Shown: one piece after another, positions 12,559-28,411 of the stretch
Layout of the letters: every line of letters starts with the position of its first letter
Position numbering within the stretch: position 1 is the stretch's first letter
NCBI GenBank assembly: GCA_026398275.1
Contig: JAPLTF010000029.1
Span: forward strand, 1-49,525
Length of the DNA stretch: 49,525 bases
Source of the DNA: Verrucomicrobiota bacterium
GTDB lineage: Bacteria > Verrucomicrobiota > Verrucomicrobiia > Chthoniobacterales > Terrimicrobiaceae
Direction of reading: 5' to 3'
The notes under the pieces: generated by a model
Database searches by the model: none
What the model was told of the DNA's origin: nothing
What the model saw: only the letters and a program-made list of their open reading frames with translations
Program-made: the position numbers and the translations under genes

Positions 12559-12620
12559 CCCGCGACTGTAGCGGCCCGCCGCAAACTTGCCAGTCTGCGG
12601 ATTCGGGAGCGCACGATGGG

Positions 12621-12755
12621 GGCGGGATCAAAGGTGGGTGCGGTTGCAAATAGGAGCAGGGCGGGACGTCCCCGGCCCGCTGCTTTCTTCCTTCGGGCAG
12701 CCCGGAGGTCTGCCCCTGCCTTTCACGGAAAACCTCACCCACACTTCATCACACC
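12621..12755 (+). repeat. MITE-like dispersed repeat, copy 1
   Basis: About 135 bp bounded by imperfect terminal inverted repeats: GATCAAAGGTGGGTGCGGTT on the left and the complement of GATGAAGTGTGGGTGAGGTT on the right (16 of 20 positions agree). The interior holds GGGCGGGACGTCCCCGGCCC and CAGCCCGGAGGTCTG, both shared with the copy near 28.3 kb in opposite orientation. Possible degenerate flanking repeats are GCGCACGATGG and GCGCGATGG. It is non-coding. Confidence 0.7.
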
Positions 12756-12807
12756 TGCGCGATGGAATCCGCGCGACTTGTGCGGGATTCTTTGATGAGA
12801 TCCACCC

Positions 12808-22134: not shown

Positions 22135-22779
22135 ATGGTTGAAGTTCAAAGTCACGGATTCACATTTGAAAAGTGGGTTCGTGATGCCCTATTTGAGGGA
22201 TATACCGGCAATTACATGCAGAAATGGGACATCCCTCCGGAACTCAATCGCCACGAACTTATCCCTCCGGACTTACGGAACATCCCGGTATCGGTAAAGA
22301 CCGCAAAATATGGTTCGCCGATTGCTTTGGGCGATGTTCTCAGGCAGCGAAGCATTGACGAACCATTTCTGCTGATCGCTGGTTTCTGGAAACAACGCAC
22401 CCCTTCGGAAAAATGGTTCGAAGACATCGGATGGGTGAAATTTACTCCTGCCGTATGGGGCCCACTATGGGGAACACTGAGTCTGAGCCAAATCACCGAG
22501 ATTGATCGGATCGTGAAAAATCAAGAGGGACTCTATTCTGTCGTCCGAGCACAAGCCCAAGAGTGGAAAACCCGCGTGGCGTCCAGCTCAGGCAGCCGAA
22601 TTGTCGTCAATCCCAAAATTGATTCCAAGAAACAGAGACGCATCCAGTGTTCACTCCCTTTCCAAATATTTTGGAATGCTGTTGGACGAAATGCGCAGAT
22701 TCACGAAAGCCCTCTGTTATTCGGCATTCCTTTTGATAACCCTGTGATTTCGTCATCGCGGTCGTTTAGCCAAGGCTGA
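22135..22779 (+). CDS. probable type II restriction endonuclease of the R-M cassette
   Basis: The 214-residue protein is not confidently matched to a known family. It is called a restriction enzyme because it is paired, tail to tail with a 14-bp overlap, with a DNA methyltransferase and shares its lower GC (26 of 60 G+C in 22141-22200). A possible PD-(D/E)XK-like segment is PPDLRNIPVSVK followed by TAKYGSPIALGDVLRQR (about residues 43-72), though the usual acidic residue before x-K reads Ser. FLLIAGFWKQRTP follows as a likely core strand. Start ATG 22135 is the first in the frame. Function is inference from context. Confidence 0.5.
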   Translation: MVEVQSHGFTFEKWVRDALFEGYTGNYMQKWDIPPELNRHELIPPDLRNIPVSVKTAKYGSPIALGDVLRQRSIDEPFLLIAGFWKQRTPSEKWFEDIGWVKFTPAVWGPLWGTLSLSQITEIDRIVKNQEGLYSVVRAQAQEWKTRVASSSGSRIVVNPKIDSKKQRRIQCSLPFQIFWNAVGRNAQIHESPLLFGIPFDNPVISSSRSFSQG

Positions 22780-23830
22780 ATTCTGGGGAAGCAAGGATTC
22801 GCGCCATTCTCTTTTTTGTGATCTCGCAGTAGTCGGGGTTGAGTTCGATGCCAGTCCATTGTCTGCCCAGTTCCTCGGCGGCTGCCGCAGTGGTCCCACT
22901 TCCAAGAAACGGGTCGAGCACGGCATCTCCCTTCCGGCTGCTCGAGAGAATAAGTTGCTGGATGAGTGCGATGGGCTTTTGCGAGGGATGCCCGATCTTT
23001 TCCTTCGAGGAGCCTTTCAAAGAAGGGATACGCAGGATATTCGTAGCATACTTGCCTTTCCTGAGATGCAGCTCCCGAGCGTCCTTGTCTTTGTATCGCT
23101 TGTCCTTGAGATACGACTGGATTTTCTCCTCTTCATAAGGAAGCCGCACGGCATCCTTGTCAAAGTATGGCGTTGAATTAGCCGAATGACGGAGTGCAAG
23201 GACCATTTCGTATTGAGGCGTGAATGAATCGTAGCGTTCGTTGTATCCTACAGCCCTGTCCCAGACGATCATGTCGTGAAATTGCATCTCTTTCGCCAGC
23301 ATCGCGCAGGTGTGCAGCCAAACATGCTCCCTCTTCCCGAGCTGGCCGAAGACGTAGAGGAGGCCGTCGGGGCGAAGAACTCTTTTGCATTCGCGCACCC
23401 ATTTAAGAGTCCATTCCAGATAATCATCAGGCGATTTCCAAGTGTTGTCCCAACTTTCCTCCAATAGAACCTGGAAGTATGGCGGATCAGCGATGATCAG
23501 CTGGAACTTGCGGTCACCAAGTTTCGGGAGAACTTCCAGCGCGTCTCCAATAATGATTTCACCATTTCCAACCGTGGTTTTGTCCAAGTGCGACGTGTGA
23601 TACATAGGCGCATCTTCCATTACTATTGCGCGCGCGCAACCTTTTTCTGTCGGGCGGCCTTTATTTTTTCTTCCATGTCGAATAAAATGTGCAAGATCAG
23701 ATTCTTGAATGAGGTGGTCTCTTCCCCTTTTTTCCGCAGGAATTCGGCCATCTTTGATCAGCTTTCTGACTCTCGCCTTGCTGACCCCAAGATAAGTTGC
23801 AGCAGCCTCTGTCGTAAAATGGTCTCGCAT
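22766..23830 (-). CDS. site-specific DNA methyltransferase (N6-adenine or N4-cytosine) with N-terminal helix-turn-helix
   Basis: Transfers methyl from S-adenosylmethionine to DNA and should protect host sites from the neighbouring endonuclease. From ATG 23830 the product has about 354 residues. Residues 4-50 are an excisionase/MerR-like helix-turn-helix (FTTEAAATYLGVSKARVRKL), motif IV is DPPY (115-118) and motif I is DPFLGSGTT (about 306-314). The IV-then-I order marks the beta class, and DPPY favours adenine. The fused HTH may bind DNA or autoregulate the operon. A TTG two codons upstream (23836) is an alternative start. Lower GC than its neighbours and isolation from metabolic operons suggest horizontal acquisition. 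Confidence 0.88.
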   Translation of the reverse strand: MRDHFTTEAAATYLGVSKARVRKLIKDGRIPAEKRGRDHLIQESDLAHFIRHGRKNKGRPTEKGCARAIVMEDAPMYHTSHLDKTTVGNGEIIIGDALEVLPKLGDRKFQLIIADPPYFQVLLEESWDNTWKSPDDYLEWTLKWVRECKRVLRPDGLLYVFGQLGKREHVWLHTCAMLAKEMQFHDMIVWDRAVGYNERYDSFTPQYEMVLALRHSANSTPYFDKDAVRLPYEEEKIQSYLKDKRYKDKDARELHLRKGKYATNILRIPSLKGSSKEKIGHPSQKPIALIQQLILSSSRKGDAVLDPFLGSGTTAAAAEELGRQWTGIELNPDYCEITKKRMARILASPEFSLG

Positions 23831-23842
23831 GCGCAATGTTTA

Positions 23843-23934
23843 TTAACGGTCGCCCTTCTTGCCTGCAAGATCGAACTGATCCCACAAGCGCGGGACAAAC
23901 TCGAACCGGATCGTCGTCTTCCGGAAGCAGTGAT
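23843..23934 (-). pseudogene. possible C-terminal gene fragment upstream of the methyltransferase
   Basis: One frame gives about 30 protein-like residues (RKTTIRFEFVPRLWDQF then DLAGKKGDR) ending in a double stop TAATAA, about 12 nt before the methyltransferase ATG. An in-frame TGA lies immediately upstream and no start codon precedes the conserved-looking part. It is therefore at most a fragment, perhaps cut off when the R-M cassette or the neighbouring repeat arrived. It may be a chance frame. Confidence 0.2.
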
Positions 23935-23942
23935 CAGGTCAG

Positions 23943-24091
23943 GTGTGATGAAATGTGGGTGAGGTTGAAAGGTTCGTGCGCGGGTGGATCGCGACCTCCG
24001 GGCGCGATGGGAAGAAGTGGCGGCGAAACCGCGTAGGTGCAGGGTGCGAGTCAAAGCGCCCGATCCGCCGCCCCCACATTTGATCACACCC
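23943..24091 (-). mobile_element. MITE-like element, copy 2, with flanking 11-bp direct repeat
   Basis: A 149-bp non-coding element. Its ends GTGTGATGAAATGTGGG and CCCCACATTTGATCACAC are near-perfect inverted repeats. The 11-bp sequence GATCAGGTCAG stands directly on both sides (23932-23942 and 24092-24102), as expected for a target-site duplication. The right copy contains the stop codon of the GNAT gene, so insertion happened at that gene's 3' end without changing its protein. The interior shares GCCCGGAGGTC (reverse orientation) with copies 1 and 3. It encodes no transposase, so it would depend on one elsewhere. Confidence 0.8.
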
Positions 24092-24093
24092 GA

Positions 24094-24786
24094 TCAGGTC
24101 AGCTGCTTGATCGCGGTCGTTAGGTAGACGGCCTCGGGGTGCTTGCCGCGGTATTTTGTGATCTCCTTTTTCTCGATCACGCGGAATCCGAACCGCTCGA
24201 GAACCTTGGCCCCGCGGCGGGATTCGAAAGTGACCATCTGGCCGAAGACCGCCTTCTCCCCGCGCGACTTGAGGTAGTCGAAGTAGGCGTTCAGCATCAC
24301 ATGCGTCCCGGCGATGCTCTGCGCCTCGGGGAGGACGTTGAAATGGAAGTGGGCGGTTTTTCTGGGTGCGGCCGGGACCTCGCGCCAGGAGTTCTTCAGG
24401 ATCCAGTGGATGAATTCCCGTGTGGCCGGATTGTAGCGGCGGTATCGCGCGAGGCCGGTGGCAAATAGGCTGAGGTTGTGGAAGAAGCTGTGCCACTGCT
24501 GGCGCAGCGGGCGCCGCGAGCCGAGCAGGTAGCCTTTCACCACGCCGTCCTGTTCGAGGACAAAAGCGGATTCGGGCTCGATGTCGGTGTAGTAGGCCGT
24601 GAGATAGTCCGCGAAGAGTTCGCGGTCCTCGAAGATCGGATCGATCGGCTTGCCCAGGAACCCGGTCTCGCAACAAAGCCGGCGGACGGCACCGCGGTCG
24701 CGGGGTTCGTAATGTCGGATCGAAATTCCAGAGGGCAGGGCCACGGCCCATTTTGTAGGCGGGAATCCCGTTTTCGACAAGTTCAA
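24094..24786 (-). CDS. GNAT-like acetyltransferase
   Basis: The 230-residue protein starts a GNAT-like beta-alpha fold at GISIRHYEPRDRGAVRRLCC (residues 19-38). It has the central VVKGYLLGSRRP strand and ends with GAKVLERFGFRVIEKKEITKYRG, the usual last strand-helix-strand of the fold. The acetyl-CoA P-loop (R/QxxGxG/A) is not clear, so the acyl donor and substrate are open. The gene stands alone, divergent from the small membrane protein gene. Its stop codon lies inside the direct repeat flanking the MITE-like element. Confidence 0.65.
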   Translation of the reverse strand: MNLSKTGFPPTKWAVALPSGISIRHYEPRDRGAVRRLCCETGFLGKPIDPIFEDRELFADYLTAYYTDIEPESAFVLEQDGVVKGYLLGSRRPLRQQWHSFFHNLSLFATGLARYRRYNPATREFIHWILKNSWREVPAAPRKTAHFHFNVLPEAQSIAGTHVMLNAYFDYLKSRGEKAVFGQMVTFESRRGAKVLERFGFRVIEKKEITKYRGKHPEAVYLTTAIKQLT

Positions 24787-28235: not shown

Positions 28236-28377
28236 GGGTGTGATCAAATGCGGGCGAGGTTTCCTTGGTGCGAGAAAGGATCGGGTCAGACCTCCGGGCT
28301 GACCGTTCCCCACGCGGCGGGCCGGGGACGTCCCGCCCTACCACTCATCGCGTCCAACCTCACCCAGTTTTGCAATC
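28236..28377 (-). repeat. MITE-like dispersed repeat, copy 3
   Basis: About 140 bp. The left end GGGTGTGATCAAATGCGGGC and right end (CAACCTCACCCAGTTTTGCA) form imperfect inverted repeats. The interior, read on the minus strand, contains AGGGCGGGACGTCCCCGGCC and CAGCCCGGAGGTCTG, as in copy 1. No clear target duplication is seen, so it may be older. It sits in the gap between dsbD and the second TSUP gene. Confidence 0.7.
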
Positions 28378-28411
28378 GCGATACGGCAATCAGGTGATGG
28401 CGCAGGCGGGT

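What the first reader, a model, noticed from the sequence alone, without database searches (positions are those of the whole stretch)
23932..24102. MITE-like element with 11-bp direct repeat at the end of a GNAT gene
A 149-bp non-coding unit has near-perfect inverted ends (GTGTGATGAAATGTGGG and its partner CCCCACATTTGATCACAC) and is framed by GATCAGGTCAG on both sides. The direct repeat contains the GNAT stop codon, so the insertion re-created the gene's end. Two related copies (12.6 and 28.3 kb) share interior blocks. I know no named family with these ends. Seen: ends, repeats, copies. Inferred: mobility.
Basis: partly seen in the sequence, partly recalled or inferred. Interest (0 to 1): 0.6.

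Follow-up and report, generated by a model that had tools for sequence, protein, structure and literature searches.

The report
Verrucomicrobial MITE family of ISKra4 transposons
The 151-base element beside this acetyltransferase-like gene is a real non-coding hitch-hiking transposon, one of about 45 in the genome, whose ends match those of a known transposon family (ISKra4) found in related bacteria; it is a new member of an ordinary kind of mobile element.

Summary
The assembly holds 31 paired copies and about 15 strong single ends. Across the 31 pairs, 9 bp is the register at which flanks match (12 of 31 at 8/9 or better; 0 of 930 mismatched pairings). A congener lacks the element at the same gene end, beside the GNAT-like stop codon.

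The partner transposon was found. The same 24-28 bp ends (GGGTGTGATTAAAAGTGGGTGAGG...) bound a decayed 1401-bp ISKra4-family insertion sequence with a 9-bp (8/9) duplication. They also adjoin ISKra4-type transposase C-termini in six contigs of a second Verrucomicrobiota MAG and two of a third. Best explanation: a MITE family mobilised in trans by a Mutator-like (ISKra4/p-MULT4) DDE transposase. No matching transposase was found in the window's own assembly, so the copies are probably stranded now.

Most copies carry a GTAG-tagged palindrome pair inside, like a REPIN; the window copy has a different interior. New member of a known kind; interest modest.

The parts
23932..23940 (.). Left copy of the 9-bp target-site duplication, GATCAGGTC
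   Evidence: Exact match to 24092-24100; 9 bp is the register shared by the family
23941..23968 (+). Left terminal inverted repeat, AGGTGTGATGAAATGTGGGTGAGGTTGA (family consensus GGGTGTGATCAAATGTGGGTGMGGTTG)
   Evidence: Consensus of 68 ends; weight-matrix score 38.9
23969..24063 (.). Non-coding interior of minority type, sharing blocks with dispersed repeats elsewhere in the genome; no transposase coding
   Evidence: Related blocks at C72, C30, C36, C111, C63 and C95 of the same genome, several of them without these ends; no Pfam match for the overlapping 23758-24087 ORF
24064..24091 (-). Right terminal inverted repeat (22 of 28 matches to the left arm)
24092..24100 (.). Right copy of the 9-bp duplication, GATCAGGTC; holds the GNAT-like stop codon (TGA, complement of 24094-24096)
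24094..24786 (-).
12620..12756 (.). Second copy of the MITE family in the window, REPIN-like interior; degenerate duplication GCACGATGG / GCGCGATGG
28236..28382 (.). Third copy in the window; one good end at 28236, the other end decayed (right boundary approximate), REPIN-like interior

Best explanation
The element is a MITE: a short non-coding DNA with the terminal inverted repeats of an ISKra4-family (p-MULT 4, Mutator-like DDE) insertion sequence. A transposase made by a full-length element bound the GGG...CCC ends, moved the DNA and joined it to a staggered cut, so that 9 bases of target were duplicated. In this case the target was GATCAGGTC at the stop codon of a GNAT-like gene, so the gene was kept intact. 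Shown: shared ends, 9-bp duplications, many copies, an empty site in a congener, and the same ends directly abutting ISKra4 transposase genes in other Verrucomicrobiota. Inferred: mobilisation in trans, the staggered-cut mechanism itself, and that the copies in this genome are now immobile because no matching transposase was found in its assembly.
For: 31 paired copies, mostly 141-151 bp. Flank identity peaks sharply at 9 bp (0.64 against 0.26 null), 12 of 31 pairs match at 8/9 or better against 0 of 930; outside this genome 12 of 19 against 0 of 342. Congener G001 lacks the element at the GNAT-like gene end. L200 is a 1401-bp element with the same ends, a GAGCCGCC-containing duplication and a decayed transposase matching NF033572 ISKra4 at 1.2e-11. 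In six AV7 contigs and in two contigs of F1-120-MAGs170 the ISKra4 C-terminus stops at the inner edge of the same end, and F1-120-MAGs170 also holds 163-bp MITEs with the same ends and perfect 9-bp duplications. IRs of 18-39 bp, a conserved terminal C and 8-9 bp duplications are the published features of this group (PMC3942029).
Against: No intact transposase with exactly these ends was seen; the one full-length copy is decayed, and the AV7 copies are cut by contig ends. No transposase with these ends was found in the window's own assembly, so mobilisation there is not shown. The L200 transposase fragment scores well below the NF033572 curated cut-off. The empty site in G001 is not letter-for-letter the pre-insertion sequence: it has about 20 extra bases after the stop and lacks the GATCAGGTC 9-mer.
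Confidence: 0.93

Rival explanations
1. It is a REP/REPIN-type element moved by a RAYT (Y1 tyrosine) transposase, and the inverted ends are only part of a large palindrome.
For: Most family copies hold a GTAG-tagged inverted palindrome pair (GGTAGGGCGGGACGTCCCCGGCCCGCCGC ... GGTCAGCCCGGAGGTCTGCCCCTACC); Y1_Tnp genes are present in the genome; GTAG repeats are known in Verrucomicrobia (PMC3733652).
Against: To my knowledge REP/REPIN elements make no target duplication, whereas this family has a clear 9-bp register. The ends move with interiors of at least three types in this genome, and the window copy lacks the GTAG pair. The same ends flank ISKra4 transposases. The palindrome motif was not found within the Y1_Tnp loci L343 and L351.
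Confidence: 0.03
2. It is a functional hairpin (3' UTR or terminator element) kept in place by selection and not a transposon.
For: The + strand folds far better than shuffles (z -5.6). Many copies sit within 30 bp of a stop codon; 12 of 15 copies between tandem genes are nearer the upstream gene's 3' end by crude gene calls.
Against: The fold is mostly the inverted ends. There is no Rfam match, no T-tract follows it, the interiors are unrelated between copies, target duplications are present, and the element is absent from the same gene end in other members of the family.
Confidence: 0.03
3. Chance inverted repeats and a chance 11-bp direct repeat.
For: None found.
Against: 75 end motifs against 6 for the control pattern, 31 paired copies, and the statistics on 9-bp duplications.
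Confidence: 0.005

Closest known systems
ISKra4 family / p-MULT 4 group of Mutator-like DDE transposons (Guerillot et al. 2014, PMC3942029)
   Same: Ends of 24-28 bp beginning GGG and ending CCC, 9-bp target duplication, and ISKra4-type transposases directly abutting the same ends in related genomes
   Different: The window element has no transposase; the group's published phyla did not list Verrucomicrobiota. Insertions here sit mostly beside gene ends and not in a fixed place upstream of a promoter, as reported for part of the ISKra4 group (not tested formally)
Bacterial MITEs in general (RUP and NEMIS, named in the background of PMC3733652; Nezha, in its reference list)
   Same: Non-coding, short, multi-copy, TIR-bounded, moved in trans by the transposase of a related IS
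   Different: Other transposase families and other ends; to my knowledge none of these is an ISKra4-family MITE
GTAG-tagged REPs / REPINs (PMC3733652)
   Same: The majority interior type is a pair of inverted GTAG-tagged palindromes; such repeats are reported in Verrucomicrobia
   Different: Here they lie nested between ISKra4-type ends; they also occur without those ends; a RAYT link was not shown; the window copy itself lacks the GTAG pair

Membership tests
MITE | Short (about 70-300 bp), no coding capacity | tested here: met
   151 bp; the overlapping 23758-24087 ORF has no Pfam family and the element carries no transposase
MITE | Terminal inverted repeats and target-site duplication | tested here: met
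   22 of 28 over the arms, GATCAGGTC on both sides; family-wide 9-bp register
MITE | Multiple dispersed copies and an empty site in a relative | tested here: met
   31 paired copies; G001 lacks it at the same gene end
MITE | Ends match those of an autonomous element | tested here: met
   L200, AV7 contigs and L261/L268 carry the same ends beside ISKra4-type transposases; no intact full-length copy seen
ISKra4 family (p-MULT 4) ends | IRs of 18-39 bp with conserved terminal C | tested here: met
   About 26-28 bp ends, GGG...CCC; criterion from PMC3942029
ISKra4 family (p-MULT 4) ends | 8 or 9 bp duplication | tested here: met
   9 bp
ISKra4 family (p-MULT 4) ends | ISKra4-family transposase between the ends of the autonomous element | tested here: met
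   NF033572 matches at L200 (1.2e-11 for one fragment; 2.4e-26 for the C-terminal part), AV7 and F1-120-MAGs170; decayed or contig-cut copies only, below the curated cut-off
ISKra4 family (p-MULT 4) ends | Intact DDE catalytic triad in the partner transposase | not tested
   No intact partner transposase was recovered
REP/REPIN (RAYT-mobilised) | No target duplication; palindromes with a GTAG-type tag; RAYT gene in the genome beside the repeats | tested here: not met
   Clear 9-bp duplication; the window copy has no GTAG pair; Y1_Tnp genes exist but not beside the motif in L343 and L351

The most novel reading that the evidence does not exclude
In this genome the ISKra4-type ends carry a REPIN-like palindrome pair as their standard interior (24 of 31 copies, plus two close variants), and other Verrucomicrobiota have other palindromic interiors between the same ends. 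The composite may thus spread repeats of one transposition system by means of another, as a generic carrier for palindromic DNA.
Probability: 0.3. Interest if true: 0.5.

Novelty: new member of a known kind. Interest (0 to 1): 0.33.

Why it matters
It gives a named parent family to an abundant, probably unannotated repeat of Verrucomicrobiota genomes and, to my knowledge, a first MITE family for ISKra4/p-MULT 4; no paper in the searched library holds the end sequences, and the library holds only part of the literature. In bin_182 these ends sit close to many contig ends, so they probably limit assemblies of such genomes. Otherwise it is ordinary mobile DNA.

Tried and rejected
Rfam found nothing. 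An autonomous element in the own genome: no pair of ends at 0.7-3 kb and no match to the L200 transposase fragment in 39 relatives; the single ISKra4 match in G000 (C97, 26.7 bits) is a C-terminal scrap of a different lineage without these ends. The intact 475-aa ISKra4 transposase of G007 also has other ends (reads ...GTCCTGCACCC at its 3' side) and was rejected as the partner. Phage and plasmid collections had no match to the element and viral contigs none to the ends. A phylum sample of 387 genomes at one mismatch matched only the own genome, so the family is patchy; the larger named collection gave 90 stretches, mostly in Verrucomicrobiota MAGs. REP/RAYT origin and functional-hairpin origin were considered and rejected as the main explanation (see rivals). 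Literature: four papers hold both ISKra4 and MITE; two of these were not opened, and the one read in part, PMC9208149, does not link the two.

Full report
Setting. The window is contig 42 of a 4.66-Mb, 117-contig assembly (98.7% complete). The organism is therefore a Verrucomicrobiota bacterium, probably of the Terrimicrobiaceae (inference).

Observation. The ends, the framing direct repeat and the other copies are real. Aligning 68 ends gives the consensus GGG[T/C]GTGATCAAA[T/A]GTGGGTG[A/C]GGTTG, with random sequence outside GGG. The arms match at 22 of 28 positions.

Copies in the own genome. A 15-base end motif with up to two mismatches hits 75 times against 6 for the reversed control; a 24-base motif with up to three mismatches hits 53 times against 0. 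In the fetched stretches a weight matrix gave 31 paired elements, most of 141-151 bp, and about 15 further strong single ends. Comparing the left and right flanks of the 31 pairs, identity is at background for 5-7 and 11-12 bases but 0.64 at 9 bases (null 0.26); 12 of 31 reach 8/9 or better against 0 of 930 cross-pairings. Nineteen paired elements in other genomes give the same result, 12 of 19 against 0 of 342, several with perfect 9-mers. By crude gene calls nearly all copies lie between genes; of 15 between tandem genes, 12 are nearer the upstream gene's 3' end. This may simply be selection against damage.

The site. The host gene on the minus strand ends ...CTG ACC TGA, and the TGA lies in the duplicated 9-mer, so the frame is unchanged by the insertion. 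The gene is found in 25 of 26 genomes of the family. In the congener G001 the gene is followed directly by the same downstream sequence (CTTTCGGAATACGACGATCCGGTT...) without the element. That site has about 20 bases (GGCTGTCCGCACGGACAG...) that the window lacks, so it is an empty site but not the exact pre-insertion sequence.

Parent family. An exact scan of 84,980 species genomes with the 24-base end motif gave 90 stretches, mostly in MAGs labelled Verrucomicrobiota or unlabelled 'bacterium'. One, L200, holds two such ends 1401 bp apart with a duplication matching at 8 of 9 bases. Between them is a frame-shifted transposase gene; one intact 153-aa fragment matches NCBIfam NF033572 (ISKra4 family transposase) at 1.2e-11 and the C-terminal part at 2.4e-26. 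In MAG AV7 six contigs with different flanks read from the same end into ...GLPIGSGMIESGHRHVLQARLKKAGAAWLIENADHIANLRVLRANGQWLSLWN-stop, with the stop codon at the inner edge of the end; two contigs of MAG F1-120-MAGs170 do the same with ...RWLSIWN-stop. F1-120-MAGs170 also holds 163-bp MITEs with these ends and perfect 9-bp duplications, so parent remnants and MITEs coexist in one genome. Guerillot et al. (PMC3942029) give IRs of 18-39 bp with a conserved terminal C and 8-9 bp duplications for this group, proposed to move through a circular intermediate.

No transposase at home. The own genome and 38 relatives show no match to the L200 transposase fragment, and the ISKra4 profile finds only a 41-position C-terminal scrap of another lineage. 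The genome is a draft, so a collapsed repeat could be missing.

Interiors. In this genome 24 of 31 copies, plus two close variants, hold GGTAGGGCGGGACGTCCCCGGCCCGCCGC ... GGTCAGCCCGGAGGTCTGCCCCTACC, an inverted pair of GTAG-tagged palindromes; mean pairwise identity of the 24 is 79%. The same block occurs without these ends at C12 and twice in C86, so it is a repeat in its own right. A third interior type (AGGCGGGACGCCTGT) is at C13:150, C51 and C58. The window copy has yet another interior whose pieces are also scattered. GTAG repeats are known in Verrucomicrobia (PMC3733652). A link to a RAYT was not shown.

Mechanism. Shown: ends, duplications, copies, empty site, linkage of the ends to ISKra4-type genes. 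Inferred: transposase acting in trans, staggered 9-bp cut, possible circular intermediate (from published relatives), present immobility in this genome.

Verdict. A MITE family of the ISKra4 group in Verrucomicrobiota: a new member of a known kind.

Noticed in passing
G000 C12:169 and C86:1914 and 9136 (L314, L330, L331); inside most family copies, e.g. window 12620-12756: A GTAG-tagged inverted palindrome pair occurs both inside the MITE and without its ends: an independent REPIN-like repeat. In L331 it sits between other terminal sequences (GGGTGCAG... and ...GTCCTGCACCC).
   Followed up: partly
L142 1144-1891 (G005 C123:17643-18390): A 748-bp stretch between the same ends holds a broken reading frame ([34 protein letters not shown]...) that resembles GxxExxY proteins by eye; no target duplication.
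   Followed up: partly
L168 5686-5743 (G005 C51): A 58-bp element made of two ends almost back to back, without a target duplication.
   Followed up: no
MAG bin_182 (JAIFLJ), loci L163-L251: Dozens of ends lie within about 100-200 bp of contig ends, with at least six different interiors: high-copy repeats that probably break the assembly.
   Followed up: partly
L252 (G007 C46:16324-17475): An intact 475-aa ISKra4-family transposase of another lineage in a family member; a related C-terminal scrap is in the own genome (C97:18671-18793) and at G010 C249.
   Followed up: partly
window about 23870-23933 (+): The last codons (...KRGTNSNRIVVFRKQ-stop) of a convergent gene that is longer in the congener G001 (L306); only this stub seems left in the window, next to a different DNA methylase gene (22766-23836, minus).
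   Followed up: partly
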